64,000 bases of DNA from Nitrospiraceae bacterium (lineage in GTDB: Bacteria > Nitrospirota > Thermodesulfovibrionia > Thermodesulfovibrionales > UBA6898): NCBI GenBank assembly GCA_020347665.1, contig CP070737.1:2082223-2146222 (forward strand). The letters run 5' to 3'. Shown here one piece after another: positions 1,299-54,016 of the stretch. The notes under the pieces are model-generated. The model worked only from the letters and a program-made list of their open reading frames with translations. It was not told the DNA's origin and did no database searches. The translations under genes were made by a program, and so were the position numbers. Each line of letters begins with the position of its first letter. The first letter of the stretch is position 1.

Positions 1299-1328
1299 AT
1301 TTTTTAGGATGCCAGAAGCCGCATTCAA

Positions 1329-1580: not shown

Positions 1581-1615
1581 AAAGAGAGCGGAGTCTATCT
1601 CCGCTCTCTTTTTTT
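1581..1615. terminator. Rho-independent terminator after groEL
   Basis: A perfect stem GAGAGCGGA (1584-1592) / TCCGCTCTC (1600-1608) with a 7-nt loop is flanked by an A-run on the left and a T-run on the right. The stem can extend through A-T pairs, and the element is symmetric enough to act in both directions. It lies just downstream of the groEL stop codon on the minus strand. Confidence 0.9.
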
Positions 1616-1635
1616 ATTTGTTACTGCTGGGTTAA

Positions 1636-3291
<1,656 letters not shown>

Positions 3292-3302
3292 TTAATGTTC
3301 TG

Positions 3303-3563: not shown

Positions 3564-3610
3564 TCGCACATCTCCTTTCTTATCTGTATACTCCACATTT
3601 TTTGGGATTA

Positions 3611-3637
3611 TTAGCACTCACTGCGAGTGAGTGCTAA
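3611..3637. promoter_or_regulatory. CIRCE operator (HrcA binding site)
   Basis: TTAGCACTC-N9-GAGTGCTAA is an exact match to the CIRCE inverted repeat. It lies between the groES start codon and the proposed promoter, so HrcA bound here should block transcription of groESL until heat stress. hrcA itself is not in this window. Confidence 0.98.
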
Positions 3638-3638
3638 T

Positions 3639-3667
3639 ATACTAAGAAAAAAGTCGGAATAAAGCAA
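3639..3667 (-). promoter_or_regulatory. Probable sigma-70 promoter of groESL
   Basis: On the minus strand TTGCTT (3667-3662) is followed after 17 nt by TAGTAT (3644-3639), and transcription would start inside or next to the CIRCE element. This placement is usual for HrcA-controlled groE promoters. The -10 match is moderate; TATATT two bases further on is an alternative. Confidence 0.6.
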
Positions 3668-3746
3668 GTTTTTTAAATCGCTGGAAAAAGCAGAAAAAGT
3701 CTAAATATTTATTATTTTCTCAAAAAAACGCAGTTTTTCAGATAAA

Positions 3747-5314: not shown

Positions 5315-5623
5315 TGTTCATTACCTTGTTTCAGCTTCACTATTCTTGATGATTACGTTCTTTGTAACGGCTTATAGAACATAGCTTTTATTGTACACGA
5401 ATCAATCCCTTATATTACACAATCCATTTGTCAGAGCTTTTTGTGATCCCGAACCGGATGAAATGAACCTTTGAAAATGCGCATGCTCAGGGCACAAGAG
5501 TCGTTCGTTCCGTGACAGAGTTCTTATTTCTTACGCATAGGGCTATCATAGTACAGATCTTCGCAATGAGGTGACGGTTCATCTTCTTGCAGGTGATGCC
5601 TGTGCCGGGTATGTTCCCAGAGA
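5315..5623. other. Non-coding gap, nothing recognised
   Basis: About 310 bases lie between the NuoG-like gene and the rhomboid gene, both on the minus strand. No ORF with family similarity, no strong hairpin terminator and no near-consensus promoter was found. Confidence 0.5.
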
Positions 5624-8107
5624 CTATATCTTCACGGCTTCAATCTTCACTGCATTCATACGTGATACGCCATTTTCTGATGGAGACATAAGCGCGTTCA
5701 CCCGGCCGTGAGGAAAATGAAGTGACGTAAAGATCGTCCCCTGAGGAAGAGCATCGGAAATCCTGGCCTTGAGATACACTGATCCCTGTCTCGAAGAGAT
5801 TTTGACATGGCTGTTATCGTTAATGCCATATTTTTTTGCATCAACCTCGCTTATCTCTAGAATTGCCTCTGAAACAACCAGATCAAGGGCTTTTGAACGA
5901 GTTGACATGGTGCCGGAATGCTGCAGTACATCCCGTGTAACAAGTGCCAGAGGATAATCATTATCCGGTGATTCAGTCGGTGAATACGAAACAGCATGAA
6001 ATACCCGTTTGGTGTATACCGTATCTTCCTCACGAATCTTTTTATCGATTTCAGCTGTTATGTCTTTAACATCTCTACCAGCGATATCCATTCCCATGGT
6101 CAGTGAAAGGTTTCTCAGGATTTTCCAGTCAGGCACAGCCTGGCCAGGGGCGTTAACAGCCTTGTGAACCTGCTGGATGATACCTTCGGTGTTTATGAAT
6201 GTGCCATCTTTTTCAGCCCAGCTTGAAGCAGGCAGTATAACATGTGCATATTTAGCAGTCGCGGTCATAGCTATATCCAGTACAACGAACAGGTCAAGAG
6301 ATTTGAGTGTCTTGATAATCTTTGCATTATGCGGAAGAGCTGAGACAGCGTCCTCCCCCATCATGATAAGGGCCTTTATGGCTCCCGGCTCATACAGCAT
6401 GCTATATATATTCTTCACATGGAGGTAATCATGGTCAGAGCGAATTCCCATTTTGTACATCCCGTACGTGTTTGCATATTCAGCAGGTATCTGAAGGGCA
6501 TCTCTGTCATCTCCCAGGAGGGTGATCAGGTTCGCTGCCGCAAGGACAGTATCCATGCCTTTTGTATTTTCTGTCGGCGCAAGAGTACATGATATCATTC
6601 TACTTCCTGCACGGGCGATTTCTTGAGCAGCAGACAAGAGATCTTCAGGAGAAATATCAGTAATTGTGGCAACCGTATCCGGGGTGACGTGCTTCAGGCT
6701 GTCTGTAAACTCTGAAAAGCCAGGAGTCTTTGCGATAATCTCCCGGTTGAACAGTTCTCTGTCGATGATCGTTTTCATAATGCCGTTCAGAAATGCAACG
6801 GATGTTCCCTCCCTCATCCTGATATGACGTGAACTGTTTCTGGTCAGTTTCGTTTCGCGGGCATCAGCTACAATGAGATGGGAACCTGTGGTTTTTGCTT
6901 TCAGGATATTCAGTCCGAAGACAGGATGGGAAATACTGAGGTCCGATTCCACAATGAGAATGACGTCTTTTCCCAGCGGGGACTTCAGGTCTATCTTGTG
7001 CATATGCAGACCAAAGGCCTTATTAAGGGCCTCCTGAACTTTCGCATATCCAAAGGCAGCGGAAGAATCGATATTCCGTGACCTGACAACATCCACCATG
7101 AATTTTTTCAGCATGTAATTATCTTCATTCGTGCATCTGGAGGACCCGATCGCGCCTATAAATTCACTGCCGGAGGAATGTATTACCTGTTTAAGCCGAT
7201 CGCTTATATAGGTGAGGGCTTCATCCCATGTTACTGGAATGAATTCCTGGTTTTTCCTCATAAGCGGCGTTTTCAGGCGGTTCTCACTATATACATAATC
7301 AAATCCGAATCGTCCCCTGCCGCAGAGATTCCCTTCGCTTCTTCCATTATCTTCTTTCCCGCGTGAGCGCAGGATTTCTCCTTCTCTCATTCCAAGGGTA
7401 AGCGTGCACCCACATCCGCAGAATGGACAGATCGTATCTTTTTCTTCAAGAAACCACGCGCGTGCCTTGAATTTATACGGCTTGTTCAGGAGTGCCCCCG
7501 TCGGGCAGGCGTCAACACACTGTCCGCAATAATCACACTCAAGAATTTCACCAAAGGCAGGTTGCACGACTGTCGGAAATCCTCTGCCGATAAGTCCCAG
7601 AGCGCCGCGTCTCTGATGCTCATGACAGAGGCGGACGCATTTCCCGCACAGAATGCATCTGTTCGATGTCAGCTCTATGAGTGGTCCTCTCACATCAGGA
7701 GGAGCGGTCTTTCTGTGCCGCAGAAAACGTCCTTCAGGTTTGCCGTACTCGTACGCGAGGTCTTGGAGATCACATTCACCTGCCTTATCGCATACGGGAC
7801 AGTCTAGCGGGTGGTGTACCAGAAGCAGTTCAAGAACCGTCTGACGGGCCTTTCTCAGCTTCGGAGTATCGGTTTTTATGACCATTCCGGGGGCTGCCGG
7901 AGTCGAGCAGGAGGCAAACAGTCTCGGCTGACCTTCCACTTCTACCACACACAATCTGCACCCTCCATAGGGTCGCAGCCTTTTGTCAAAGCAGAGATTG
8001 GGTATCTTGATCCCGTTCCTTTTGGCGGCCTGCAAGATCGTAGAGCCATCTTCCGCAGATACCTGCTTTTCATTTATGGTAAGTGTGATCATGATGTTTT
8101 CCCCCAT
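5624..8107 (-). CDS. NuoG-like iron-sulfur / molybdopterin-fold subunit
   Basis: This 827-residue subunit resembles complex I NuoG and formate dehydrogenase alpha chains. In order it carries a 2Fe-2S domain (C39, C50, C53, C67), a His-Cys3 cluster (H99, C103, C106, C112), two 4Fe-4S ferredoxin clusters (C151-x2-C-x2-C-x3-C and C191-x2-C-x2-C-x3-C), a further CPFCGCGC cluster near 227-234, and a molybdopterin oxidoreductase fold with a dinucleotide-binding C-terminus. Where formate dehydrogenases have the catalytic Cys/SeCys-His, this protein reads SAAFGYAKVQ, so formate chemistry is unlikely. The ATG at 8107 overlaps the preceding stop (TAATG); an ATG at 8092 with GGGGGA upstream is an alternative. 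It ends the sigma-54-controlled operon and probably passes electrons between the NuoF-like partner and an unknown acceptor. Confidence 0.85.
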   Translation of the reverse strand: MGENIMITLTINEKQVSAEDGSTILQAAKRNGIKIPNLCFDKRLRPYGGCRLCVVEVEGQPRLFASCSTPAAPGMVIKTDTPKLRKARQTVLELLLVHHPLDCPVCDKAGECDLQDLAYEYGKPEGRFLRHRKTAPPDVRGPLIELTSNRCILCGKCVRLCHEHQRRGALGLIGRGFPTVVQPAFGEILECDYCGQCVDACPTGALLNKPYKFKARAWFLEEKDTICPFCGCGCTLTLGMREGEILRSRGKEDNGRSEGNLCGRGRFGFDYVYSENRLKTPLMRKNQEFIPVTWDEALTYISDRLKQVIHSSGSEFIGAIGSSRCTNEDNYMLKKFMVDVVRSRNIDSSAAFGYAKVQEALNKAFGLHMHKIDLKSPLGKDVILIVESDLSISHPVFGLNILKAKTTGSHLIVADARETKLTRNSSRHIRMREGTSVAFLNGIMKTIIDRELFNREIIAKTPGFSEFTDSLKHVTPDTVATITDISPEDLLSAAQEIARAGSRMISCTLAPTENTKGMDTVLAAANLITLLGDDRDALQIPAEYANTYGMYKMGIRSDHDYLHVKNIYSMLYEPGAIKALIMMGEDAVSALPHNAKIIKTLKSLDLFVVLDIAMTATAKYAHVILPASSWAEKDGTFINTEGIIQQVHKAVNAPGQAVPDWKILRNLSLTMGMDIAGRDVKDITAEIDKKIREEDTVYTKRVFHAVSYSPTESPDNDYPLALVTRDVLQHSGTMSTRSKALDLVVSEAILEISEVDAKKYGINDNSHVKISSRQGSVYLKARISDALPQGTIFTSLHFPHGRVNALMSPSENGVSRMNAVKIEAVKI

Positions 8108-39490: not shown

Positions 39491-42097
39491 ATGGATATTA
39501 TTACATCCCATATTAATGCGGACTTCGATTCATTGGCCTCAATGGTGGCAGCAAAAAAACTATATCCCAAAGCCGTCATAGTATTTCCCGGTTCTCAGGA
39601 GCGAAAACTAAGAGACTTTATTGAGGTTTTTCATCCTGTTGAGATTAAACGCGTTAAAGATATCGAACTGTCAAAAGTCAGGAAGTTGATTATTGTTGAT
39701 ACGAAACAACCGGGCAGAATAGGACGGTTTTCAGAGGTGCTCTTGAACAAGAATCTCAAGATTCACATCTATGACCATCATCCATTCGTAACGGATGATA
39801 TCAGAGGTGAACTAGAAAAGATCGAGGATGTCGGGGCTACGGCAACGATATTCACAGAACTGCTGAAAAACAAAAAACTTCATCCAACACCCATGGAATC
39901 CACGATTCTCGCTCTTGGTATTTATGAAGAGACCGGATGTCTTCTCTTCCCGACCACAACTGAGAGGGATTTGCTGGCTGTTTCATACCTGTTAAAAAAA
40001 GGTGCTAACCTGAACATTGTTTCAAACTTCCTGAAAATAGGTTTAAATATCGAGGAACTGGATCTGCTCAATGAGTTGGTAAAATCATTGAAGGAGAGTG
40101 TTATCAGGGGAGTGAGAATAGCAATGGCAAAAGCGTCCCGGGAGCATTATATCGGAGATGCAGCACATCTGGCCCACAGAATCATGGATATGGAAGATAT
40201 TGACGCGGTAATCCTTCTTTTGCATATGGAAGGCAAGATTTTAATGGTTGCCCGAAGCCGTGTACCTGAATGCGATGTCGCGGGATTACTGAGAGAGTTT
40301 GGCGGTGGTGGGCATCCGACTGCAGCTTCTGCTACGATTAAGGAGGCATCGATCGAAGTTGTCTCTGATAAGGTTTTACACCTTCTTCCGGAGTACGTTA
40401 AACCGGGAAAAGTGGCAGCTGATATCATGACAAGTCCGGTCATCACAATACCCTGGGACAGCTCCATAAAGGAAGCAGAAGATACTATGACACGATACGG
40501 AGTTAACGTGCTTCCAGTGGTACAGGACGAAAAATACCTCGGGTTAATTTCGCGGGAAATAGTTGAAAAGGCACTCTTCCACGGGTTCAAGAAAAACAGG
40601 TGCAAGGATTTTTCTACCACAGAGGCGTTAATTGTTGATACTCATGCGCCTATCAGAGATGTTGAAGCCATGATGGTCGAACAGAATCAGCGGTTTATGC
40701 CGGTGGTACAGGACGAGATTATTGTGGGAGCTATAACAAGAACTGATTTGCTCCGGGTTCTTTATGAAGAATTTTTGAGAAGGAGACAGCTCGACAAAGA
40801 GGATATGCCTGCAAAGCCTGCAGCAGGAAGAAACTTATCAACATGGCTCCGGGATAGATATCCTCAGGAAGTTTTTGACATTTTAAGAGAGTCTGCTGAG
40901 ACAGCGGATGAAATGGGATACAGTGCTTACCTCGTTGGAGGCTCTGTACGAGACCTGTTGTTAGGGCAGAAGAATCTTGATATAGATATTGTTATTGAGG
41001 GGGATGGAATACTTTTTGCGAAAGGTTTGAGCAAGAAATTAAAGAAGAAAGTAAGATCTCATCAACGATTTGGGACTGCCAAAATAATAACAGATGGGCT
41101 GAGAGTTGATATTGCGACAGCGCGGACTGAATATTATGAATCGCCCGGTGCATTACCAACGGTTGAAACATCATCCATCAAAAAAGACCTTTATCGGCGG
41201 GATTTTACCATAAACACGCTTGCCATAAAACTGAATCAGAAGGACTTTGGTCTGCTCTTAGACTTTTTTGGAGGACAGCGGGACATACGGGAGAAGACAA
41301 TACGGGTGTTACATAACCTCAGCTTCATAGAGGACCCGACACGTGCTTTCCGTGCTATAAGATTTTCCGAACGTTTCGGTTTCAAACCGAGTAAACACAC
41401 TGAAAATCTCATAAAATCAACCATAAAAATGGATTTGTTCGAAAAACTTTCCGGATCGCGATTATATGAAGAATTCTTTCTGGCTTTCAGCGAAACACAC
41501 CCGGTCAGAACATTAAAAAGGTTGTCAGATTACGGCCTCCTGAAGGTAATTCATCAGCATCTGGTATTTGATGACAAGCTCGAAGCAACACTCTCGTCGA
41601 TGTATGAGACAATTGCGTGGTATAACCTGCTGTATCTTGGAGAAAAGGCCGACTTAGGGATTCTCTACCTCATGGCACTTTTTTCAAGCCTTGCCGAAAC
41701 GGAAAAAAGTGATGCCCTCGATAGGCTTTCAACGCCGCCGCAGATTAAAGAAATAATTCTGAAAAACTATATCGATGCAACAGACATAAGCAAAACCCTC
41801 CCCTTGCATGATCCCGCAGATATCTATCATCTGCTTATGCATAGGAAAATTGAAAGCATACTATTTGCAATGGCAATAACAAACGATACACGTATAAAAA
41901 AGGAAATTTCTCACTTTCTTATAGCATTGAAAAACATCACGCCATTACTGAAAGGAGCTGATTTAAAAAAGCTTGATATTCAACCGGGCCCTGTCTACTC
42001 AAGAATTCTTGGACAATTGCTTGATGAAAAACTGAGAGGACGATTAAAGACCCGGAATGATGAAATCGAATTTGTCAAAGAACAGTATCGGGATTAA
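39491..42097 (+). CDS. DHH / CBS / tRNA nucleotidyltransferase fusion protein
   Basis: This 868-residue protein has an N-terminal DHH/DHHA1 phosphoesterase (HINADFDSLAS at 7-17, IYDHHPF, FGGGGHPTAAS), two CBS domains (about 315-440) with MTSPVITIPWDSSIKEAE, and a C-terminal class II tRNA nucleotidyltransferase/poly(A) polymerase (LVGGSVRDLLLGQKNLDIDIVIEGD with the catalytic Asp pair; RRDFTINTLA; RAIRFSERFGF). This fusion is known in Nitrospirota, Aquificales and deltaproteobacteria, where it adds A or CCA to tRNA 3' ends; the DHH part may process nucleotides and the CBS pair sense adenylates. TACAAC (39479-39484) lies 6 nt before the ATG with no ribosome-binding site. Confidence 0.92.
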   Translation: MDIITSHINADFDSLASMVAAKKLYPKAVIVFPGSQERKLRDFIEVFHPVEIKRVKDIELSKVRKLIIVDTKQPGRIGRFSEVLLNKNLKIHIYDHHPFVTDDIRGELEKIEDVGATATIFTELLKNKKLHPTPMESTILALGIYEETGCLLFPTTTERDLLAVSYLLKKGANLNIVSNFLKIGLNIEELDLLNELVKSLKESVIRGVRIAMAKASREHYIGDAAHLAHRIMDMEDIDAVILLLHMEGKILMVARSRVPECDVAGLLREFGGGGHPTAASATIKEASIEVVSDKVLHLLPEYVKPGKVAADIMTSPVITIPWDSSIKEAEDTMTRYGVNVLPVVQDEKYLGLISREIVEKALFHGFKKNRCKDFSTTEALIVDTHAPIRDVEAMMVEQNQRFMPVVQDEIIVGAITRTDLLRVLYEEFLRRRQLDKEDMPAKPAAGRNLSTWLRDRYPQEVFDILRESAETADEMGYSAYLVGGSVRDLLLGQKNLDIDIVIEGDGILFAKGLSKKLKKKVRSHQRFGTAKIITDGLRVDIATARTEYYESPGALPTVETSSIKKDLYRRDFTINTLAIKLNQKDFGLLLDFFGGQRDIREKTIRVLHNLSFIEDPTRAFRAIRFSERFGFKPSKHTENLIKSTIKMDLFEKLSGSRLYEEFFLAFSETHPVRTLKRLSDYGLLKVIHQHLVFDDKLEATLSSMYETIAWYNLLYLGEKADLGILYLMALFSSLAETEKSDALDRLSTPPQIKEIILKNYIDATDISKTLPLHDPADIYHLLMHRKIESILFAMAITNDTRIKKEISHFLIALKNITPLLKGADLKKLDIQPGPVYSRILGQLLDEKLRGRLKTRNDEIEFVKEQYRD

Positions 42098-42546: not shown

Positions 42547-43413
42547 ATGGAAAGAGTAAGTTTAAAGAAAAATCAAGGACTTATCCTGATGATCAATATC
42601 GGTTTGGGATTTCTTCTCATTATCGCTATTCTGTTCTTCATAAGGAATCTTATTGCAATATCGGTTCAAAACAAACATAAGAAAATAAGCGGCAGTGGGG
42701 ATGTCCGGAAGGGCATACAGTTGGGTTTTCAAGATTACGCGGTTATCGTAGAAAATAATCCCTTCGGATTTCCTGGCGGCGAACTTTTTCGTCTTTCCGC
42801 TGTATCAGCTCCTCAGGACAGTGGCAACCTGACCCTCATCGGTGTTGTCTCCGGGCATGAAAGTGTTAGTTTCGCAATCTTTATGGATCATACAGGGCAG
42901 CAGGAGGTATTTCGTGCAGGTGATGCCGTCTATGGAATCGGAACACTCGAGACCATTGAAAAAGACCGGGTTTTTTTGGGAGGTGGGGAAGGCCTGCATG
43001 AGATGGTGATCGCCGATATATCTCGAAGAAAAACACCAGAGAGGGGACAGAGAAGTGGCACGGCTTCCGCTCAATTTTCAAAAAAGATTTCTGATGATAC
43101 CTTTTACCTTGATCAACGAAAGGTACAGCGTGCCATTGCTAACCCAAAAGAACTTATGACTGATGCACGTCTGTTGCCAAATTATATGGGCGGCAAGCAG
43201 GAAGGATTTGCCTTGAGCGAAGTAAGACCTCACGGTATCTATCAGAGCCTTGGCCTGCAGAATGGAGATGTCTTGCTGAGGATCAACGAGTTTGATATCT
43301 CCCATCCGGAATATGCCCTGCAGGCATTCACTGCCCTTCAGGGAATGGACCGGGTGCAGCTGGATATTATTAGAAATGGATCGAAGATGACCATGACATA
43401 CCAAATAAGATAA
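42547..43413 (+). CDS. gspC: Type II secretion inner-membrane protein GspC
   Basis: This 288-residue bitopic protein has a cytoplasmic N-terminus, one TM at about 11-32, a periplasmic HR domain (about 55-150; NLTLIGVVSG) and a C-terminal PDZ domain (about 205-285; GIYQSLGLQNGDVLLRIN). GspC links the inner-membrane platform to the secretin and recruits substrates. It is the first gene of gspCDEFGHIJKLMN. No ribosome-binding site precedes the ATG, in line with the promoter position. Confidence 0.9.
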   Translation: MERVSLKKNQGLILMINIGLGFLLIIAILFFIRNLIAISVQNKHKKISGSGDVRKGIQLGFQDYAVIVENNPFGFPGGELFRLSAVSAPQDSGNLTLIGVVSGHESVSFAIFMDHTGQQEVFRAGDAVYGIGTLETIEKDRVFLGGGEGLHEMVIADISRRKTPERGQRSGTASAQFSKKISDDTFYLDQRKVQRAIANPKELMTDARLLPNYMGGKQEGFALSEVRPHGIYQSLGLQNGDVLLRINEFDISHPEYALQAFTALQGMDRVQLDIIRNGSKMTMTYQIR

Positions 43414-43493: not shown

Positions 43494-45698
43494 ATGATGA
43501 AGAATCGTTCACTCCGGCTTTCCTGTATCATCATGGTGTGCTCTTTTATTGTTTTCTTCTCCCTTATTAATTACCCCTTGGCTGAGACAGGAAATAAGCA
43601 GGATGTTACTTTCAATTTTGTAGATGTTGATCTTGCAACGGTTACGAAGTTCATCAGTGAGATTACCGGGAAGAATTTTATCTTTGACAACAGGGTTAAA
43701 GGAAAGATAACAATTATAGCTCCGACTAAACTGAACATTCATGATGCATTTAAACTGTATACATCCATTCTGGAACTCAAGGGCTACACGGTTGTGCATT
43801 CAGGAGACCTGAACGTATATAAAATCATTCCTGCTGCCGAAGCAAAACAGAAAGGTATTAATATAGTCACTGAAAGACAAACGCTCGACGAAAGTTTTAT
43901 AGCAAGGATTATTTCGCTCAATGATATATCGTCGGAACATGCCTTTAATCTTATCCAACCGATGGTATCAAGAAACGGACATATATCTGAATTCGGTCCG
44001 GGCAACATGATTCTGGTGGTCGATTCGGGAGTTAATATTCAGAAGATTTTGGATATTATCGAGGCTGTTGACAAACCAGGAGCTAAAGCCCAGCAGGATA
44101 TTGTTTTTCTCCAACACTCAAGTGCAGAAACAGTCGCGAAAATCCTGAATCAGGGCATGACAAGCCGGACGGTCTCGCCAGTGCGAGGAAAAGCTATCAG
44201 AACAGAGGAGGGCAGGGCTGTTGCAGACCAACGCTTAAATGCCGTTATTCTTTTTGGTGATAAAGGGGTAAGAGAATCAATGAAGTCTCTGATAGCTGCT
44301 CTCGATGTCCCATCACCCGGTGCCCAGGGAAGAATTAATGTCTATTTTCTTGAGAATGCTGATGCGGGCGAACTTGCAGAGGTCCTTGAAGGGATCATCC
44401 GGGGCGCACAACCCAAGACCAGAGATACGGACAAAACGGGTGCGCCGATGACGCCCTTCGAAGCCGCAGGAGGGATATCCGTCACCGCAGATGAAGGTAC
44501 CAATGCGCTTATCATAGTTGCTTCGCCCTCAGATTATCAGAACCTCATATATGTCATAAAACAGTTAGACAGGAAAAGGAGACAAGTATATGTTGAGGTG
44601 ATGATCGTAGAGGCCTCGATTGATGAACTGCGGGATCTTGGAACGCAATGGAGAGTAATAGCGACGCATAATGATGAACCAGTCGCGATCGGAGGTTTTA
44701 GATCAGTTGACCCGACAGATATTCAGAATTTAATATTCGGACTTACGGGTCTTACGGGGGGAGGGTTCGGTAATTTCCTTGATATTGACGTTAATACAAT
44801 TGATCCTGAAACTGGTGAGATTACTACAGCGACGTTAACAATCCCAGGATTTGCTGCTCTGTTCAATCTGGATGAATTTGAAGGTGCCATAAATGTTCTC
44901 TCAACTCCACAGATACTGACATCCGACAATCAGGAGGCAACTATTCATGTCGGTGAGAACGTCCCGTTTGTTTCTTCGAGAGAGCGCGACATTACCACAA
45001 CGAATACTGTCCTGACGTCCATCGAACGGACGGATGTTGGAATAATCCTGAAAATAACCCCTCAGATTACTGAAGGAGATTTTGTAAAGCTTATTTTGTT
45101 CCAGGAGATATCCGCGGTGAAACCAGAACCCGATGAAGATATTCTTATCAATGTCGGACCGACGACGACCGTCCGATCGACCAATACATCAGTTGTGGTA
45201 AAAGATAACCAGACGGTTGTTATTAGCGGATTAATTCAGGAAAGAGAGGAAGACAATTCAACGAAGATTCCTTTACTTGGTGATATCCCTCTTCTGGGAT
45301 GGCTTTTTAAAACTGAAAGAACGTCAAAGTTAAAAACAAATCTATTAGTCTTTATTACTCCTCATATCGTGAAGAATGAACAAGATCTTCATCACATTAC
45401 CCGGGAGAAGAGCAGGGCGTTCGCTCAGACAGAAAAGCAGTATGTGGCGGGAGAGCTGATGGTGAAATTTAGAGATGATATTACCGAAGAAACAGCCGAA
45501 CAGATCATTTCTGCGCAAGGTGCGTCAATAATAAAATTTTTTGATATGATCGGCGTCTATCACATACGCCTCAGGGAAGGGCAGCCTATAGAAGACGCAG
45601 TTGAGGAGTTTTCATCGATGCCTGAAGTTAAATATGCGGAACCTAACTACAGGATGCAGATTGATCAAAACCTTGAATCACGGGGAATGAGACAATAG
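43494..45698 (+). CDS. gspD: Type II secretin GspD with a C-terminal subtilase-prodomain-like extension
   Basis: This 734-residue protein has a signal peptide (about 1-30), N0 domain (NFVDVDLATVTKFISEITGKNFIFD), repeated N1-N3 KH-like domains, and the secretin barrel (about 370-620; VYVEVMIVEASIDELRDLG, STPQILTSDNQEATIHVGENVPF, PLLGDIPLLGWLFK). It forms the outer-membrane channel. Residues about 650-734 go beyond the usual end: YVAGELMVKFRDD, a GASIIKFF stretch and PEVKYAEPNY closely resemble the inhibitory N-terminal prodomain of fervidolysin-type subtilases, with no protease attached. GGAG precedes the ATG. Confidence 0.92.
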   Translation: MMKNRSLRLSCIIMVCSFIVFFSLINYPLAETGNKQDVTFNFVDVDLATVTKFISEITGKNFIFDNRVKGKITIIAPTKLNIHDAFKLYTSILELKGYTVVHSGDLNVYKIIPAAEAKQKGINIVTERQTLDESFIARIISLNDISSEHAFNLIQPMVSRNGHISEFGPGNMILVVDSGVNIQKILDIIEAVDKPGAKAQQDIVFLQHSSAETVAKILNQGMTSRTVSPVRGKAIRTEEGRAVADQRLNAVILFGDKGVRESMKSLIAALDVPSPGAQGRINVYFLENADAGELAEVLEGIIRGAQPKTRDTDKTGAPMTPFEAAGGISVTADEGTNALIIVASPSDYQNLIYVIKQLDRKRRQVYVEVMIVEASIDELRDLGTQWRVIATHNDEPVAIGGFRSVDPTDIQNLIFGLTGLTGGGFGNFLDIDVNTIDPETGEITTATLTIPGFAALFNLDEFEGAINVLSTPQILTSDNQEATIHVGENVPFVSSRERDITTTNTVLTSIERTDVGIILKITPQITEGDFVKLILFQEISAVKPEPDEDILINVGPTTTVRSTNTSVVVKDNQTVVISGLIQEREEDNSTKIPLLGDIPLLGWLFKTERTSKLKTNLLVFITPHIVKNEQDLHHITREKSRAFAQTEKQYVAGELMVKFRDDITEETAEQIISAQGASIIKFFDMIGVYHIRLREGQPIEDAVEEFSSMPEVKYAEPNYRMQIDQNLESRGMRQ

Positions 45699-45793: not shown

Positions 45794-47323
45794 ATGGAAC
45801 CCGACAATGCTATAAAAGACGAAGATATTGATATATCCCTTATTCAGGAAGTTCCGCTTTCCTTTGCACGAAGTAATCTCATCATGCCAATGAAAAGAGA
45901 AGGCGGAAGACTTGTTGCGGCTGTTGCTAACAAACGAGGGCTGCTGGCCTTAAGAGATCTTTCAAGACAGTTCGGTCTCCACCCCCTTCCCCTTGAAGTT
46001 TCCGAGCAATCAGTCATTGATGCAATTAATCGGGTTTATGGTCAATTGGGCTCTGCTGAGGAAGTTATGCAGGATATCTCAGGTGAAGACCTCTCATCAA
46101 TTGCAACAGAATTTGAACGTCCAAGAGATCTCCTTGAGCTTACAGAAGAGGCTCCTATCATTCGTTTGCTCAATGCGCTTTTGCAGCAGGCTGTCAAAGA
46201 GAAAGCGAGTGATATCCATATCGAACCATATGAAAAAGAACTGGATGTACGAATGCGCATGGATGGAATACTGCATAAGATACTGTCTCCGCCCAAAATT
46301 GTTCAGGATGCGCTTATCAGCAGAATCAAGATCATGGCAAATCTGGATATAGCAGAAAAAAGGCTTCCTCAGGATGGACGAATCCGCCTGCTTGTCGGAG
46401 GACGTGATATAGATATAAGAGTTTCAATCGTGCCGACCTCATTCGGTGAACGGGCGGTGTTACGATTGCTCGACAGAAAACAGGGGCTTATTGGATTGAA
46501 CGAGATAGGTCTCGACGGCGAAGAAAGAGGACGATTTGAAGAATTCCTGAATAGAACAAATGGAATTCTCCTCGTTACTGGTCCTACCGGAAGCGGTAAG
46601 ACAACAACGCTCTATGCTTCGTTGAATAGAATTCATACGGAAGAAAAGAATATTATTACGGTAGAAGACCCTGTTGAGTACCAGCTAAAAGGGGTCGGGC
46701 AGATACAGGTTAATCCAAGGATAGGTCTTACCTTTGCGTCTGGTCTGCGATCAATAGTTCGGCAGGATCCCGATGTCATTATGATTGGTGAGATCAGAGA
46801 TTTTGAAACTGCTGAAATTGCAATTCAGGCATCTCTTACAGGCCATCTCGTTTTGAGTACGTTACATACCAATGATGCGGCATCCGCCATAACGCGGCTT
46901 GTTGATATGGGTGTAGAGCCATTTCTCATTGCATCCTCTCTTTCAGCCGTTCTTGCACAGAGACTCGTGCGAATGATTTGTCCCCAGTGCAAGCAGTCGT
47001 TCGAAATAAGTGAGGAGGAAGCCCGCTATTTTGAGCCAGTGCAATCGATATCATTGCCGCGTATGCTCTTTAGAGGTAGCGGATGTAACGGATGTAAGGG
47101 TACCGGCTATATGGGAAGAACAGGAATTTTTGAAATTATTTCCATAAACAATGACGTGCGAAAAATGATAACGGGCAGAGCAGATGCCCGGGCGATCAAG
47201 GACAGTGTTGTTGCGAAGGGAATGAAAACCCTTTATATCGATGGATTGCAGAAAGTTTTAAAAGGGCTGACGACACTTGAGGAGGTAATGCGGGTTACCC
47301 AGAAAGATTATGCCGATTTTTAA
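45794..47323 (+). CDS. gspE: Type II secretion ATPase GspE
   Basis: This 509-residue cytoplasmic hexameric ATPase powers pseudopilus assembly. The N-terminal MshEN-type region is followed by the Asp box (EKASDIHIEPYEKE), Walker A GPTGSGKTTT, His boxes (STLHTNDAASAITRLVDMG) and a zinc-binding tetracysteine domain (CPQCKQSF and GCNGCKGTGYMGR). TATACT (45779-45784) lies 9 nt before the ATG. It overlaps gspF by 14 nt. Confidence 0.97.
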   Translation: MEPDNAIKDEDIDISLIQEVPLSFARSNLIMPMKREGGRLVAAVANKRGLLALRDLSRQFGLHPLPLEVSEQSVIDAINRVYGQLGSAEEVMQDISGEDLSSIATEFERPRDLLELTEEAPIIRLLNALLQQAVKEKASDIHIEPYEKELDVRMRMDGILHKILSPPKIVQDALISRIKIMANLDIAEKRLPQDGRIRLLVGGRDIDIRVSIVPTSFGERAVLRLLDRKQGLIGLNEIGLDGEERGRFEEFLNRTNGILLVTGPTGSGKTTTLYASLNRIHTEEKNIITVEDPVEYQLKGVGQIQVNPRIGLTFASGLRSIVRQDPDVIMIGEIRDFETAEIAIQASLTGHLVLSTLHTNDAASAITRLVDMGVEPFLIASSLSAVLAQRLVRMICPQCKQSFEISEEEARYFEPVQSISLPRMLFRGSGCNGCKGTGYMGRTGIFEIISINNDVRKMITGRADARAIKDSVVAKGMKTLYIDGLQKVLKGLTTLEEVMRVTQKDYADF

Positions 47324-48485
47324 GTTTAGAGGATATAAAAATGATGGTTCCGGGGTATCAGGAACGATAGAGGCATCTGGCCCTGCCGATGCGGTTACGA
47401 GGATAAAAGCAGAAGGCATATTTCCCAGCGACATCGTTGAACCGCATCGTATCTACCGAAAACGTTTTTTCAGGAAAAAAGATGAAACATTCATCCCTCA
47501 GATAACACGACAGCTTTCCATGCTCCTTTCATCTGGAGTACCACTGCTTGATGCCCTTCAATCACTTGCTGCAGAGCAGAGCGTTTTTTACAGGGAGATG
47601 CTTGTGGCAGTCAAGGAACAGGTTGCTGGTGGATCGACCCTGTGCCGGGCACTTGAGGAGTTTCCCGATGATTTCCCGGAATTCTACCGGAGCATGGTTC
47701 GAGCAGGGGAGCAGAGCGGTACACTCGATAAAGTGCTTGAAAGACTTGCAGATTTTCTTGAGAAAAAAAATGCCGTTCGTTCAAAAGTGCGTTCATCAAT
47801 GATATATCCGGTCATTATGCTGGGGGTTAGTTTTGTAGTTCTTTCATTCCTGTTTGCATTTGTAATACCGAAAATCGTAACAATTTTTGAAAATACGAAA
47901 AATATATTGCCGCTGAGTACACGAATTCTCATAAGTGTGAGTAATCTTTTTATTCACTACTGGTGGGTTATGCTTGGTTTGGCAGCTGTCTGTTATGCGG
48001 TAGTACGATGGTTTATGAGATCATACCGTTCTTTTGTTGATACGATGAAGCTCAGGATGTTCGGAAGAATCGTGCAAAGCCTGTATTATGCCAGGTTTTC
48101 AAGAACCTTAGGCTTCCTTATTGAAGGCGGAATGCCTATGTTGAGTGCATTGAAGCTTTCTGCGGGATCAATTAATAACAGAGTGCTCGAAGACGCTGTG
48201 CTCCAGGCTGAAGAAAAAGTCGCTCAGGGCCAAAGACTTTCTGCGTCACTCGAGACATTTTCACCGGTTTTTATCCAGCTGATTGCAACCGGTGAACGAA
48301 GCGGAAGACTTGCTGAGACATTGAAAAAAGCTGCTGATGCATATGAAAATGAATTCGACAGGAGCGTAACGAATGCTGTATCAGTTTTTGAGCCGCTCAT
48401 GATAATAGGTATGGCTCTCATTGTTGCATTTATTGTGCTGGCGGTATTACTGCCAATATTCCAGTTGAATCAGATCATAACGTAA
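47310..48485 (+). CDS. gspF: Type II secretion platform protein GspF
   Basis: This 391-residue inner-membrane protein has two repeated GspF/PilC cytoplasmic domains and three TM segments (about 165-190, 215-235, 362-388). Motifs are [34 protein letters not shown] and [18 protein letters not shown]. It forms the platform on which the pseudopilus is assembled. It starts inside gspE. Confidence 0.96.
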
Positions 48486-48516: not shown

Positions 48517-48975
48517 ATGAAAAAAAGATTATTACCCCCATACATATTCAGGCGTTCGGGTTTTACGCTTCTTGAAATTCTGGTGGTTGTAGCTATCCTC
48601 GGTATTCTCGTTGCCTTTGTCGCTCCGAAGATAATCGGAAGGGCCGATGATGCCCGTGTGGAAGGTGCAAAAGTCCAGATAAAGAACTTTGAGACTGCGC
48701 TTAAGCTTTTTAAACTGGATAATGGATTTTATCCTGATACACAGCAGGGACTTGAAGCCCTTGTCCAGAAGCCAGCGGCCGGAAGGATTCCCAAGAAATA
48801 CAGGGAGGGAGGATACCTTGAAAAGAAAGATGTTCCTGCGGACCCGTGGGGCAATCCATATATTTATATCTCCCCGGGAATACAGAATGATTTTGACATT
48901 ATAAGCTATGGTGCTGACGGAGCTGAAGGTGGTAATAAATACGACGCCGATATTAATAACTGGACAATAGAATAG
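48517..48975 (+). CDS. gspG: Major pseudopilin GspG
   Basis: This 152-residue protein has a short basic leader and the prepilin peptidase site [21 protein letters not shown], with Glu at position +5, then the GspG-type domain with Ca-loop-like features ([23 protein letters not shown]). It is the main pseudopilus subunit. A GGAGAGGGTG ribosome-binding site precedes the ATG. The prepilin peptidase gene (gspO/pilD) is not in the window. Confidence 0.97.
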
Positions 48976-48976
48976 A

Positions 48977-49501
48977 ATGGACAGCACACATGTGAGAATG
49001 CATAATGCAAGGTTAAAAACAGGTAAAATAAGCAATCAGCGATCTGGAGACGTTACTGTCTGTTCCAGTGGTTTTACGCTGTTTGAACTCTTGTTGATTC
49101 TGTTTATCATATCCCTTTTTATATCACTTGCCATGCCGTCTTTATCAGTCCTCGGCGAAAGGAGAATAAAGTCAGATGCCAAGAGGCTGGCTTCCATCGT
49201 GAGATATCTTCATGACAGTTCATTAACGGGAAAAGAGATATATTCGTTAACGATGGATTTTGAGGAAAAGGTATTGAGATATACCGGCCCTGAAGGGGAA
49301 AAACGAGAGACTTTCAAAACGGTTGTCAGTGCTGAACTGATGACAAAAGGATTTGTGTCAGAGGGTGAACTGACTATTTATTTCAGACCAACAGGGGGAT
49401 CAGAGGTTTTCCGGATACTGCTTGATGATGACAAAACATCCTATATGATTTCGTTCAATCCTTTCAGTGGGAGAGCAAAAATAACTCAAAACGAAACATG
49501 A
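48977..49501 (+). CDS. gspH: Minor pseudopilin GspH
   Basis: This 174-residue prepilin-like protein has the cleavage motif SSG|FTLFELLLILFIISL, with Glu at +5, and a GspH/FimT-type C-terminal domain. The leader is about 32 residues, long for a pseudopilin; a start at the internal Met (residue 8) would shorten it. It lies directly after gspG and overlaps gspI by 4 nt. Confidence 0.85.
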   Translation: MDSTHVRMHNARLKTGKISNQRSGDVTVCSSGFTLFELLLILFIISLFISLAMPSLSVLGERRIKSDAKRLASIVRYLHDSSLTGKEIYSLTMDFEEKVLRYTGPEGEKRETFKTVVSAELMTKGFVSEGELTIYFRPTGGSEVFRILLDDDKTSYMISFNPFSGRAKITQNET

Positions 49502-49899
49502 GAGGTTCAGAAATAAAGGGATATTTGTTATACATGCAGCAACCGGAATTTTGCGTACACAAAAAAGAGGGATTTACTCTCCTCGAGGTGCTGTTAAGTA
49601 TCGCCATTATTGGCGGTCTCCTGGTGACTCTTCTGTATTCCATTAATTATCATCTGGGGATTGCTGATCGGCATACAGTAATAACTGTTGCTACAAGTCT
49701 GGCCAAGGCGAAAATATATGAAGCTGAAAAGAAACTATCATCTGGAAGAGGATATTTTGAAGAACCATTCAAGGACTTTACCTTTGAAACAAGAATCATG
49801 GATTCTCTATACCCCGGGATGAAAGCAATTGAGGTTGTAGTGAGCAATGGTGATGAAACGATACAGTTAAACAAATTGATCGAGAACAAAAATGAATAA
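49498..49899 (+). CDS. gspI: Minor pseudopilin GspI
   Basis: This 133-residue prepilin-like protein has cleavage motif KEG|FTLLEVLLSIAIIGG (Glu at +5) and a short C-terminal domain of GspI type. It is part of the tip complex with GspJ and GspK. The start overlaps gspH and the end overlaps gspJ by 8 nt. Confidence 0.87.
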   Translation: MRGSEIKGYLLYMQQPEFCVHKKEGFTLLEVLLSIAIIGGLLVTLLYSINYHLGIADRHTVITVATSLAKAKIYEAEKKLSSGRGYFEEPFKDFTFETRIMDSLYPGMKAIEVVVSNGDETIQLNKLIENKNE

Positions 49900-50521
49900 C
49901 AGAACATATTCAAACGGTATTTTATTCAGACATACAGGGTTTACCCTTATAGAGGTGCTTATTGCTGTTGCAATTTTTTCCCTCGTTATGGTTTCCCTGT
50001 ACAGTTCTTTTTCACTTTCCTATAGGGCTGTAACAGAAGTGGATGATTCACTTCTGAAACTCCAGGAATCACGAGGCATCCTGGATATTATAAAACGTGA
50101 AATCGAATCAGCTTTTTATGAACAAAACAAAGATTATGTGTTTTTTAAGCTGGATGACAGGGATTTTTACGGAAGACAAGCCTCAGAAATATCTTTCACC
50201 TCATTTTCCCCTTTGATGCCTGGGATAGCAATAATAAGCTATGCCTTTGATGAGCTCGATGAAAAAATGGCATTGCGGAAGCAGCTTTCATCGTTATATA
50301 CATCGCCTAAGGATAGTGCTGGGGTAATCTTATTAGAGGATATTGAATTATTCGTCATCGAAGCGAAATATAAGGATCAGTGGGTAAAGACGTGGGATAG
50401 TAATGCCACCGGTAGGCTGCCCGATGAACTAAGAATATCGATTGCCATGAAGATCGGAGACCGGAAGGACATTGTTACTGTTTCAGATATTGCACGGCCA
50501 AAGATTGGAAAAACCCTATGA
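49892..50521 (+). CDS. gspJ: Minor pseudopilin GspJ
   Basis: This 209-residue prepilin-like protein has cleavage motif HTG|FTLIEVLIAVAIFSL and a C-terminal domain with LDIIKREIESAF and ISFTSFSP segments typical of GspJ. It forms the pseudopilus tip with GspI and GspK and overlaps gspK by 4 nt. Confidence 0.9.
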   Translation: MNNRTYSNGILFRHTGFTLIEVLIAVAIFSLVMVSLYSSFSLSYRAVTEVDDSLLKLQESRGILDIIKREIESAFYEQNKDYVFFKLDDRDFYGRQASEISFTSFSPLMPGIAIISYAFDELDEKMALRKQLSSLYTSPKDSAGVILLEDIELFVIEAKYKDQWVKTWDSNATGRLPDELRISIAMKIGDRKDIVTVSDIARPKIGKTL

Positions 50522-51453
50522 AACAAAGAAAAGCCTGCATGATTGGTACTGTGTACGCAACTTCGGAAAGCGGAATGGCACTGGTGGTGACACTCATGAT
50601 ATTGGCATTGATTACCGCCTTGGTCGTTGAATTTGCCTATGGTGTATATACGACCACGGCAGCACTCCAGAACTGGAAAGATTCCCAGCGCCTGTCACTC
50701 ATTGCAGTGTCAGGTCAGCATCTTGCAGTGAAAACATTGCAGGAGGCAGATCGACTGTATACCTATACATATCCGGGAAAAACAGAGATGCCGCTCCCCG
50801 GAATTGTTGAAGACTTCGAGGGCATGGTATTTGTCAAGGTTGAAGATGAAAATGCTAAGCTGAATATTAATTCAATCATCTTGGCTAATGGATTGCTCAA
50901 CGAGCATTCGTATAAATCATTTAGATTTCTTTTAAGGCATCTTGGTATTGATGAAGACATTGCTGATATCGTTGCCGATTGGATTGACAAAGACAGCAAG
51001 CCGCGCCTCTCAATATCCGAGGAGAATGCAAAGAACGATTATATGGACAGTATCGATGAATTGCTCCTGCTGCAAAGAATTAATCCTGACATATATGAAA
51101 AGGTATTGCCGTACATTACGGTCTATAGCATGACAAAATCAAAACTTGACATGGTTAATATTAATACAGTTTCAATTCCTGTTATAATGTCTCTCGACGA
51201 CAGAATAACTGAGGAGCTTGCCGAGAGAATTATCGACTACAGGGAGATTTCGCCCTTCGAACACGCATATGATATTTTAAAAGTTGCAGGATTCGATGAC
51301 ATTGGAAAACCTCTGCAGGCAAAGATTGCGGTAAAAGCCACGAATTTCAGAATTATCTGTATAGCCGAAGAGCGGAATATAAAGAGAGTTATTGAATCAG
51401 TTATTCAACTGAAGAACGGCGGTTATAGAATTACATACTGGATGGAGACGTGA
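50518..51453 (+). CDS. gspK: Minor pseudopilin GspK
   Basis: This 311-residue protein has a membrane segment after ESG|MALVVTLMILALITALV. As in other GspK proteins the +5 position lacks Glu. A large globular domain with a helix-hairpin-helix-like region (VNINTVSIPVIMSLDDRITEELAERI) follows. It caps the pseudopilus tip. It ends 6 nt before gspL. Confidence 0.9.
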   Translation: MKQRKACMIGTVYATSESGMALVVTLMILALITALVVEFAYGVYTTTAALQNWKDSQRLSLIAVSGQHLAVKTLQEADRLYTYTYPGKTEMPLPGIVEDFEGMVFVKVEDENAKLNINSIILANGLLNEHSYKSFRFLLRHLGIDEDIADIVADWIDKDSKPRLSISEENAKNDYMDSIDELLLLQRINPDIYEKVLPYITVYSMTKSKLDMVNINTVSIPVIMSLDDRITEELAERIIDYREISPFEHAYDILKVAGFDDIGKPLQAKIAVKATNFRIICIAEERNIKRVIESVIQLKNGGYRITYWMET

Positions 51454-51459
51454 CGCAGA

Positions 51460-52575
51460 ATGAAAAGAGCAGGATTTATCGACATACAAGCTTCTGATGC
51501 AAACGGGCCGGTCTCTGTGTCTAAAATGCCTGCCTCTGTGTACATATATAAAAAGGACAGCTCTTCAGGTTATGAATATGAAGGGAGAGTACATCAGATA
51601 GAGGGCAGTTCAAAAGAACAGGCTGTTGCATTAGAAGGAATTGATGAATTTTATCTGAGCATTCCCTTAACTGCACTGGACTTTAGGGTGCTTACTCTTC
51701 CTTTTTCAGATAAGGAAAAGCTTGAAAAGGTTGTGCCGTTTGAGCTGGATAACCTCATCATCGGCAGCCCTGACAGCATTGTGTTTGACACCACCGTTAT
51801 CAGAACGTCAGACAATACACACGATATCCTTGTCGCATATATCAAAAGAGAATTCTTGAGCAGTCTTCTTGAGCGTTTTGCAGAATTGGATATGGATCCG
51901 CGTGTGATAACATCCATCGAATTGGAAAAGATTATTAGGAGCGGTTCACAGGATATACCCGGGTCTCTCACAGGGAATGACATGCCGGGTCCGGATGAAA
52001 GAATAAACATTGCAGGACATGCGCTTACGGCATCGGCAATAAACCTGCGAAAAGGGAGTTTTCTGTACAGGAAAGATGAAGAGAAATTCTGGAGCAGGCT
52101 CAAGCTGACGGCTATTATTTTTTTACTGCTTACTGTTGTTCTGAACGGGCTCTTCCTGTTCAACATCTTTGCTGCCCGCAAACAGGCGTCAGAAACGGAG
52201 AGAGCAATGCAGGTGTTTTATCAGGGTCTCTTCCCAAACGAAAGAAAAATAGCTGACGAGCTGTACCAGATGAAATCACATATGCGGGAGGTGCATGATG
52301 CAGGTGAGAAGCTTCTGGGAGTTAATCCGCTGGAATTCCTTCGAGAGCTTTCCCTGAATATATCACGGGTTACATTTGATGAGATTAGTCTTGATCAGGA
52401 CCTGATAACGATGAACGGAACAGCAGGTTCAATGGACGATATAAGCAGGATGAAAGAAAATCTCTCACGGTTTTTAGCAGATGTTTCTGTATCGGATATT
52501 ACCATGACTGAAAATCGTGAGACAATATTTACCGTTGTTGCAAAACCGCCTGATTTCAGGAAAGACTCGTTATGA
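51460..52575 (+). CDS. gspL: Type II secretion protein GspL
   Basis: This 371-residue bitopic inner-membrane protein has an actin-like cytoplasmic domain (about 1-215), one TM at about 218-238, and a periplasmic ferredoxin-like domain. GspL recruits the ATPase GspE to the membrane. Similarity is mainly structural and positional: it sits between gspK and gspM and overlaps gspM by 4 nt. Confidence 0.8.
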   Translation: MKRAGFIDIQASDANGPVSVSKMPASVYIYKKDSSSGYEYEGRVHQIEGSSKEQAVALEGIDEFYLSIPLTALDFRVLTLPFSDKEKLEKVVPFELDNLIIGSPDSIVFDTTVIRTSDNTHDILVAYIKREFLSSLLERFAELDMDPRVITSIELEKIIRSGSQDIPGSLTGNDMPGPDERINIAGHALTASAINLRKGSFLYRKDEEKFWSRLKLTAIIFLLLTVVLNGLFLFNIFAARKQASETERAMQVFYQGLFPNERKIADELYQMKSHMREVHDAGEKLLGVNPLEFLRELSLNISRVTFDEISLDQDLITMNGTAGSMDDISRMKENLSRFLADVSVSDITMTENRETIFTVVAKPPDFRKDSL

Positions 52576-53147
52576 AGACCAACAGAGTTGTCAAAATCAT
52601 GTGGGATGGCATAGAACGGTATTTCCCCACAGCGATTGCACGGCGAACCGGACTGCTTCTCCTTATAGGGAGCATCTTAGCACTTCTTATTATTCCTGAA
52701 ATGTTCTTTGCGCGCGCTGTTCAAGACCAAGCTGTCAAATTGGAAGAAAGATTGACCGAACTGACTGCTCTGGGAAAAGAATATGCGTCAATCAAGGAGC
52801 GAGTTGATGCAATCGAAAAGAAATCATCACTGACCCGGGTAAGCGGCATAACCGCATCTCTCGATTCTATCATAACTGCGCTTGGCATGAAATCGAAGAT
52901 GAAAACGGTAAAGTCAATTGGTTCGAGAGACCTGAAAGAAACGCTTACAGAGGAAAAGGCAGAGATTCTTCTTGAAGGGATTACCATGAATGAAATGATC
53001 AATCTGTTTGCTGAAATCGAAACCGCACCGGTTATGCTTTCCGTGAAAAAGGCCCATATGAGAAAGACATTCGAAAGTCCCGAACTTCTGAATGTTTCTA
53101 TAACGATGGCATTATATACTCCAGTGAGGAAAAAGCCTGACGCATGA
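52572..53147 (+). CDS. gspM: Type II secretion protein GspM
   Basis: This 191-residue protein has one TM at about 30-52, a coiled-coil segment (about 55-80) and a small periplasmic domain with the LLEGITMNEMINLFAEIE-type motif of GspM/PilO-like proteins. It pairs with GspL. The assignment depends on position and topology. Confidence 0.78.
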   Translation: MKTNRVVKIMWDGIERYFPTAIARRTGLLLLIGSILALLIIPEMFFARAVQDQAVKLEERLTELTALGKEYASIKERVDAIEKKSSLTRVSGITASLDSIITALGMKSKMKTVKSIGSRDLKETLTEEKAEILLEGITMNEMINLFAEIETAPVMLSVKKAHMRKTFESPELLNVSITMALYTPVRKKPDA

Positions 53148-53215
53148 GCAGAAGAAACTCGAACAAGAGATAATCGATTATCGTGCCTCCGGCTAGCCGA
53201 GCGGTCATCTATGGG

Positions 53216-54016
53216 ATGAAAAAAATCGGAATTATTTTGGCAGCTGTTTTGATCGTTGTTATCGGTTTCTGGCTTATCGCTGTGCCCAAAAGTCTTATCA
53301 CGAACCGCATTGAAACTTCTCTTGTGGAATATAATATGGCGATTGAAACAGATGACCTGCGAAAAGGGCTTTTTTACAATCTGCGCGCTAAAAGGGTTGT
53401 TTTGAATAATGTCGGTTCGGACGATTCCCTCCGTGCCTTGTTAGTATTGGATAATATATACGCAAAGCTGGATATTCTGTCTCTGTTAACGGCACGTCCG
53501 GAAATGGATTTTGAATGCATGGTAAATAACGGTAGTGTTTCCGGATCCACACGATTGCCGGAACAGAGAACCCTTATGCTTCATGGCAGGGGGATCAATA
53601 TCAGGCAGCTGCCTTTAATGGACATGCTAAATGTACAGGGAGACGGGACCCTCTCGTTTCGTATGTCACTGATCAGGGGAGAAGGAGAGGTGCGATTTTC
53701 AGTCGATAATCTTAATATAAAAAAAGCAGGTTTTCTTAACACTATTCTCCCTACGGATCTGTTTTATGCAATAAAGGGGGCAGCACGGGTTCATGAAAAC
53801 AGAATTGACATACAGTCAGTCGCGATCAAAGGAGACGGGTTATATGCACGTGCAAAGGGAATAGTGCGGGGGCGTTCGCTGAATATGGATATGGAAATAA
53901 TGCTGGATACGTCTTTCCAGCCTGATTCGCTCATTCGAACCATGCTTGCCCGGTACAGGGTATCGCCGGGGTACTACCGGGTCCCTATTCGGCATCAATT
54001 ACCGCAGATTTTTTAG
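53216..54016 (+). CDS. gspN: Type II secretion protein GspN (AsmA-like)
   Basis: This 266-residue protein has an N-terminal TM (about 5-24) followed by a periplasmic beta-rich domain with LRAKRVVLNN- and LDNIYAKLDILSLL-like repeats, as in GspN and the AsmA/DUF748 superfamily. The start at 53216 gives the hydrophobic segment a normal signal-anchor place; an in-frame GTG at 53183 adds eleven residues. It is the last gene of the gsp operon. Confidence 0.75.
   Translation: MKKIGIILAAVLIVVIGFWLIAVPKSLITNRIETSLVEYNMAIETDDLRKGLFYNLRAKRVVLNNVGSDDSLRALLVLDNIYAKLDILSLLTARPEMDFECMVNNGSVSGSTRLPEQRTLMLHGRGINIRQLPLMDMLNVQGDGTLSFRMSLIRGEGEVRFSVDNLNIKKAGFLNTILPTDLFYAIKGAARVHENRIDIQSVAIKGDGLYARAKGIVRGRSLNMDMEIMLDTSFQPDSLIRTMLARYRVSPGYYRVPIRHQLPQIF

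What the first reader, a model, noticed from the sequence alone, without database searches (positions are those of the whole stretch)
45441..45698. Secretin GspD ends in a subtilase-prodomain-like domain
After the usual secretin end, residues about 650-734 read YVAGELMVKFRDD ... PEVKYAEPNY. This is the pattern of fervidolysin-type subtilase prodomains that inhibit and fold the protease. No protease follows. At the outer-membrane exit, such a domain could bind or hold a secreted subtilase, or block it until release.
Basis: partly seen in the sequence, partly recalled or inferred. Interest (0 to 1): 0.65.

Follow-up and report, generated by a model that had tools for sequence, protein, structure and literature searches.

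The report
Secretin tailed with subtilase-prodomain-like domain
In one class of Nitrospirota, the outer-membrane gate of the type II secretion machine carries an extra domain built like the inhibitor piece of subtilisin-type proteases, and in some relatives such proteases are encoded inside the same secretion operon, which suggests the gate can hold or quench its own protease cargo.

Summary
The 734-aa GspD (43494-45698) ends in a domain, residues 638-718, that matches Pfam Fervidolysin_NPro-like at 61.5 bits (cut-off 21). AlphaFold2 gives the prodomain fold, and Foldseek's top 11 PDB hits are all subtilase propeptides. It is not an assembly artefact: 97 of 167 genomes of the same class carry it on orthologous GspDs, and none of the sampled secretins outside the class does. 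The tails form one lineage distinct from subtilase prodomains.

The tail keeps the helix-capping Glu (84/90 tails; 38/38 subtilase prodomains). Its commonest C-terminus is exactly Glu+8, the distance to P1 in the subtilisin and PfSUB1 propeptides. In about a dozen relatives a subtilase gene lies in or beside the T2SS operon with the tailed gspD; in two genera its reading frame runs into gspG. Best reading: a secretin-anchored, prodomain-like docking or inhibitor domain for T2SS-secreted subtilases, probably periplasmic (some tails continue into a peptidoglycan-binding SPOR domain), not at the outer exit.

Against: the own genome's two subtilases already have prodomains and lie about 94 kb away; 19 tailed genomes show no subtilase; my motif/subtilase co-loss idea rests on one clade and has counterexamples. 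No binding is shown.

The parts
43494..45698 (+). gspD, T2SS secretin with C-terminal prodomain-like tail, 734 aa
   Evidence: TIGR02517 518.6 bits; Pfam N0, N1-3, Secretin, PF22148
45405..45647 (+). Fervidolysin_NPro-like (PF22148) domain, residues 638-718
   Evidence: 61.5 bits against cut-off 21; [quoted passage not shown] Foldseek top 11 all subtilase propeptides
45639..45641 (+). codon of Glu716, equivalent of the helix-capping Glu69 of the BPN' propeptide; Asn718 is the Asp71 equivalent
   Evidence: alignment with 1r6v and the BPN' propeptide; role of Glu69/Asp71 from PMC6993865; Glu in 84/90 tails and 38/38 subtilase prodomains
45651..45695 (+). 15-residue C-terminal extension after AEPNY (residues 720-734); Glu+8 is Asp724, and this protein runs 10 residues past it
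42547..43413 (+). gspC
   Evidence: NF041515 GspC_delta 161 bits
45794..47323 (+). gspE
   Evidence: ORF list and operon order; homologues in the same order in relatives
47310..48485 (+). gspF
48517..48975 (+). gspG major pseudopilin
48977..52575 (+). gspH, gspI, gspJ, gspK, gspL
52572..54016 (+). gspM-like (52572-53147) and gspN-like (53183-54016) genes
   Evidence: position and length after gspL, as in relatives; no family search was made

Best explanation
The tail is a secretin-anchored, prodomain-like binding module for subtilases that use this T2SS. Shown: it is a homologue of subtilase prodomains with the canonical predicted fold, apparently fixed once on GspD in one Nitrospirota class and kept since, with the protease-contact residues conserved; in some relatives prodomain-bearing subtilases are encoded in the same operon. 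Inferred: up to 15 copies sit on the periplasmic side of the secretin, next to the S-domain. They bind the folded, self-processed catalytic domain of a subtilase as its released prodomain does, with Glu716/Asn718 capping the two catalytic-domain helices and the following strand in the non-prime side of the active-site cleft. This would dock the protease at the secretin, or hold it inactive until it passes out, and would protect the machine from its own cargo.
For: Homology and fold. Conservation across the class and absence in the sampled secretins elsewhere. Contact residues: Glu in 84/90 tails, Pro 85/90, Asn or Asp 79/90, Tyr 81/90; role of the equivalent Glu69/Asp71 in BPN' and Glu209/Asp211 in PfSUB1 (PMC6993865). 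The commonest end of the protein is Glu+8 (29 of 86 tails), the same spacing as BPN' Glu69 to Tyr77 (own knowledge) and PfSUB1 Glu209 to Asp217. Operon linkage: S8 between gspF and gspG (L163, L242), S8 in frame with gspG (L162, L255), S8 after gspL-M-N or directly before gspC (L160, L161, L164-L168). Co-occurrence within the class: S8 in 78/97 tailed against 29/70 untailed genomes. These S8s carry C-terminal surface-sorting tags (CFI-box-CTERM, or Cys-TM-Arg), some beside myxosortase-like genes, of the kind that use the T2SS. In G005, whose GspD lacks the tail, a stand-alone signal-peptide prodomain ending AEPDYNVKIQK* lies just before a large S8 gene.
Against: No interaction, inhibition or localisation is shown. 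In the window's own genome the only two subtilases have their own prodomain and are about 94 kb from gspD. 19 of 97 tailed genomes show no subtilase at all, several of them at least 95% complete, and 14 of those 19 keep the Glu. Five genomes of one clade without S8 changed Glu to Lys/Arg, but G029 (operonic S8-GspG ORF) and G256 (S8 present) also lost it, and three S8-bearing genomes (G258, G264, G349) read AESER instead of AEPNY. The Fisher tests ignore phylogeny. Many tails, this one included, extend past Glu+8.
Confidence: 0.5

Rival explanations
1. The tail is an exapted prodomain used only inside the secretin: an add-on to the S-domain that helps secretin folding, multimer packing or outer-membrane targeting. 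Its link to proteases is history, not present function.
For: Position directly after the S-domain region; the tail persists in 19 genomes without any detected subtilase; tail-specific conserved residues absent from S8 prodomains (Tyr at alignment column 47, Glu five residues before the capping Glu); a SPOR domain added in one family suggests envelope anchoring.
Against: A purely structural role does not explain why Glu-Pro-Asn-Tyr, the protease-contact stretch, is among the most conserved positions, why so many tails stop at Glu+8, or why subtilases sit in the same operon. GspDs of genus g6 members G005 and G011 lack the tail altogether.
Confidence: 0.28
2. The tail is a trans-acting folding chaperone: it helps newly exported subtilases fold at the secretin, as an intermolecular prodomain.
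For: Prodomains of this fold are folding chaperones, and an external chaperone of a subtilase is among the structural hits (3wqb, Aeromonas ASP-ORF2).
Against: The subtilases examined in detail here have their own N-terminal prodomain, so a second chaperone is not needed for folding.
Confidence: 0.1
3. The tail is a protease target or sensor: the passing subtilase binds and clips it, so that its state gates or reports secretion.
For: The tail presents a substrate-like strand after the capping residues, followed in many members by a flexible extension.
Against: Many tails end at the P1-equivalent position with nothing left to clip (29 of 86).
Confidence: 0.07
4. The tail is an assembly or recent fusion artefact, or decaying baggage.
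For: None beyond divergence in a few lineages such as f3.
Against: 97 genomes of more than ten families carry it; all 90 tails examined are hit by an HMM of S8 prodomains.
Confidence: 0.03

Closest known systems
Fervidolysin-type N-terminal prodomain of subtilases (Pfam PF22148; structure 1r6v; MEROPS I9-like fold)
   Different: Sits at the C-terminus of a secretin, not at the N-terminus of a protease; forms its own group in a tree
Stand-alone propeptide-like inhibitors: POIA1, yeast protease B inhibitor, SPI-1, TgMIC5, Plasmodium SUB1-ProM (PMC6993865)
   Same: A prodomain module used apart from its protease, with capping Glu and Asn and a C-terminus at about P1
   Different: Those are free small proteins with shown inhibition; this one is anchored on a transport channel and inhibition is untested
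T2SS secretin GspD with S-domain (pilotin-dependent and -independent types, PMC6532946)
   Same: N0-N3 and secretin domains, full gsp operon
   Different: Known S-domains end in short helices for pilotin; no described T2SS secretin with a prodomain-like tail was found in the library
MYXO-CTERM / myxosortase and CFI-box-CTERM surface sorting with T2SS (PMC11980579)
   Same: The linked subtilases end in Cys-TM-Arg or CFI-box tags, some next to myxosortase-like CPBP genes
   Different: No secretin-borne recognition domain is described for those systems in the paper read; the CPBP proteins here score below the curated cut-offs

Membership tests
Fervidolysin_NPro-like prodomain (PF22148) | profile score above the gathering cut-off | tested here: met
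   61.5 bits against 21
[quoted passage not shown]
   AF2 pLDDT above 95 in the core; Foldseek top 11 all propeptides, best E 1.7e-3, prob 1.00
Fervidolysin_NPro-like prodomain (PF22148) | helix-capping Glu and Asp/Asn | tested here: met
   Glu716 and Asn718; Glu in 84/90 tails; the capping itself is not shown
Fervidolysin_NPro-like prodomain (PF22148) | located N-terminal to a subtilase catalytic domain in one polypeptide | tested here: not met
   fused C-terminally to GspD; gspE follows
Propeptide-like subtilase inhibitor (MEROPS I9 type) | C-terminus at the P1-equivalent position | tested here: inconclusive
   29 of 86 tails end at Glu+8; the window's protein runs 10 residues further
Propeptide-like subtilase inhibitor (MEROPS I9 type) | binds and inhibits a subtilase | not testable with these tools
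   no complex prediction or assay available here
T2SS secretin GspD | equivalog score and gsp operon | tested here: met
   TIGR02517 518.6 against 351; gspC-gspL in order
Pilotin-dependent secretin | S-domain alpha-12 Ala-Phe motif and a pilotin gene | not tested
   no pilotin search was run; an AF dipeptide occurs in the ...SRAFAQ... stretch before the tail, but its structural equivalence was not tested
MYXO-CTERM / myxosortase system (linked subtilases) | Cys motif, TM helix and Arg-rich end on the cargo | tested here: met
   own subtilases end GGCSIRGH...TM...RRK and GGGCSVSR...TM...RRR; read by eye, not by profile
MYXO-CTERM / myxosortase system (linked subtilases) | myxosortase core above the curated cut-off | tested here: not met
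   Mrt_core 61.4 bits against 100

The most novel reading that the evidence does not exclude
A T2SS whose secretin carries up to 15 built-in protease-inhibitor modules that receive a dedicated, operon-encoded subtilase (in some species made as one polyprotein with the pseudopilin GspG), so that the channel itself recognises its cargo through the cargo's active site and keeps it silent until release at the surface.
Probability: 0.3. Interest if true: 0.82.

Novelty: new variant of a known kind. Interest (0 to 1): 0.62.

Why it matters
How a T2SS recognises its folded substrates is a long-standing open question. A secretin domain homologous to the natural high-affinity partner of one substrate class gives a defined, testable recognition or safety element: one domain, one predicted Glu, one enzyme family. 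It would also be a case of a propeptide inhibitor wired into a transport channel, and it points to a class of Nitrospirota as a place to study surface-sorted proteases.

Tried and rejected
Assembly or sequencing fusion: rejected by orthologues in 97 genomes. Orphan subtilase without prodomain in this genome: looked for, none; both subtilases have PF22148. 'Two independent co-losses of the capping Glu and the operonic subtilase in family f4': first seemed true, then refuted, because G029 keeps an operonic S8 in frame with GspG on another contig; only one S8-less clade with Lys/Arg remains. Tail HMM score against S8 presence: weak (P=0.054 for S8; 0.004 for further prodomains; phylogeny not corrected). 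Single-sequence genome-contig scan for tailed secretins: returned only secretins without the tail, mostly of other taxa, useful as a negative set.

Full report
OBSERVATION. The ORF at 43494-45698 (+) encodes a 734-aa GspD. Pfam finds N0, three Secretin_N, Secretin (463-627) and then Fervidolysin_NPro-like PF22148 at 638-718 with 61.5 bits (cut-off 21). TIGR02517 GspD scores 518.6 (cut-off 351). The downstream gene is gspE, so no protease follows. To test for chance without using Pfam or the tails, I built an HMM from 38 subtilase prodomains of related genomes: it gives the window's tail 80.7 bits against at most 14.3 bits for 2000 shuffles, and it hits all 90 GspD tails.

FOLD. AlphaFold2 with 47 aligned tails gives strand-helix-strand-strand-helix-strand with block pLDDT 95-98 in the core. 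Foldseek against the PDB returns, as its first 11 hits, only subtilase propeptides or pro-subtilases (pro-subtilisin E, the BPN' prosegment 1spb, 1scj, fervidolysin 1r6v, Tk-subtilisin, PC1/3), prob 1.00, best E 1.7e-3. RRM domains follow, as expected for a ferredoxin-like fold.

DISTRIBUTION. Among 396 genomes of the phylum (Nitrospirota, inferred from record titles and the genome set; the class is probably Thermodesulfovibrionia, also an inference), 97 have a GspD whose match runs through the tail, or into it where a contig ends (G003), and all 97 are in the window's own class. The 78 secretin loci fetched by the named-genome scan, mostly from other taxa, have no tail-HMM hit. In a FastTree of tails and subtilase prodomains the tails form one side of a split (support 0.81) with two exceptions, which fits a single fusion followed by vertical descent. 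The GspDs of genus g6 members G005 and G011 stop at residue 645 without the tail.

CONTACT RESIDUES. The stretch A-E-P-N-Y is strongly conserved: Glu 84/90, Pro 85/90, Asn 72/90 plus Asp 7, Tyr 81/90 in tails, and 38/38, 38/38, 38/38, 37/38 in subtilase prodomains. Alignment to fervidolysin and the BPN' propeptide puts this Glu (Glu716 in the window) at the propeptide Glu that, with Asp71 (Asn718 here), caps two helices of the catalytic domain (Glu69/Asp71 in BPN'; Glu209/Asp211 in PfSUB1; PMC6993865). In those propeptides the C-terminal residue is eight residues after the Glu (PfSUB1 from the paper; BPN' from own knowledge). In GspD tails the position of the stop codon relative to the Glu has a sharp mode at exactly +8 (29 of 86), with 37 of 86 within +7 to +9. 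The window's protein runs to +18.

TOPOLOGY. Published secretin structures have only the top rim in the membrane and the rest, with the C-terminal S-domain, in the periplasm (PMC6532946). In several f15 members the tail is followed by a linker and a SPOR domain (PF05036 26.2 bits, cut-off 21, in L059), a peptidoglycan-binding domain. A periplasmic position is therefore the better inference.

LINK TO SUBTILASES. The own genome has two subtilases with intact D/H/S motifs and own prodomains, about 94 kb upstream of gspD, with a myxosortase-like CPBP gene between them and C-terminal Cys-TM-Arg tags. In relatives the link is tighter: S8 between gspF and gspG (L163, L242), S8 after gspL-M-N beside a CPBP gene (L164, L165, L167, L168; L160 without a CPBP gene in the fetched stretch), S8 directly before gspC (L160, L161, L164-L166). 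In two genera (L162, L255) one ORF runs in frame from prodomain-S8-CFI-box through a TM segment into the GspG prepilin signal KG/FTLLE, with the catalytic motifs present; prepilin peptidase would be expected to separate the two (inference). Within the class, S8 is present in 78/97 tailed and 29/70 untailed genomes, and further PF22148 domains in 67/97 against 17/70 (Fisher 3e-7 and 1e-8, not corrected for phylogeny or for T2SS presence). In G005, where GspD has no tail, a 119-aa stand-alone prodomain with a signal-peptide-like start and ending AEPDYNVKIQK* sits 65 bp before a large S8 ORF.

WHAT DOES NOT FIT. 19 tailed genomes have no detectable S8, several of them nearly complete, and 14 of these keep the Glu. 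The five S8-less genomes of one f4 clade have Lys or Arg in place of Glu, which looked like loss of function with loss of partner, but G029, which keeps an S8-GspG ORF, and G256, which has S8 hits, have Thr and Ser there, and three f3 genomes with S8 read AESER. This line of evidence is therefore weak. The subtilases examined have own prodomains, so the tail is not needed to fold them.

MECHANISM. I favour a docking or holding role (0.5): a ring of prodomain-like modules on the periplasmic side of the secretin binds processed subtilase through the canonical interface. The main rival (0.28) is a purely structural, exapted S-domain add-on. A direct binding and inhibition test separates them.

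NOVELTY. No paper in the library couples a secretin with a subtilase prodomain (most subscription papers not covered). The components are known kinds; the combination is a new variant.

Noticed in passing
L162:6678-9323 (+); L255:6079-8862 (+): Subtilase and major pseudopilin GspG share one in-frame ORF (prodomain, S8 with catalytic motifs, CFI-box, TM, then KG/FTLLE prepilin signal and GspG) in two genera; looks like a natural polyprotein that prepilin peptidase could cut.
   Followed up: partly
L175:404-760 (+), next to 826-7800: Stand-alone 119-aa prodomain with a signal-peptide-like start, ending at the same point as the GspD tails, directly before a very large subtilase ORF; similar short PF22148 ORFs precede longer PF22148 ORFs in G073 and G383.
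   Followed up: partly
L059, L062, L067, L076 (after the tail): A SPOR domain follows the prodomain-like tail of GspD in family f15 (profile-confirmed in L059, by eye in the others), an unusual possible peptidoglycan anchor on a T2SS secretin.
   Followed up: partly
L001:381-980 (-), and L164:283-819, L165:109-654, L167, L168: CPBP intramembrane proteases related to myxosortase/MrtS but below all curated cut-offs sit beside subtilases, several of them with Cys-TM-Arg tails; possibly an undescribed sorting pair in this class.
   Followed up: partly
L164-L166, L169, L174 upstream of gspC: Putative lipoproteins with CGGGG-type N-termini (about 200-600 aa) are clustered upstream of gspC; possible T2SS surface cargo.
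   Followed up: no
window 39491-42097: DHH/CBS/poly(A)-polymerase-like fusion (by eye) next to the T2SS operon.
   Followed up: no
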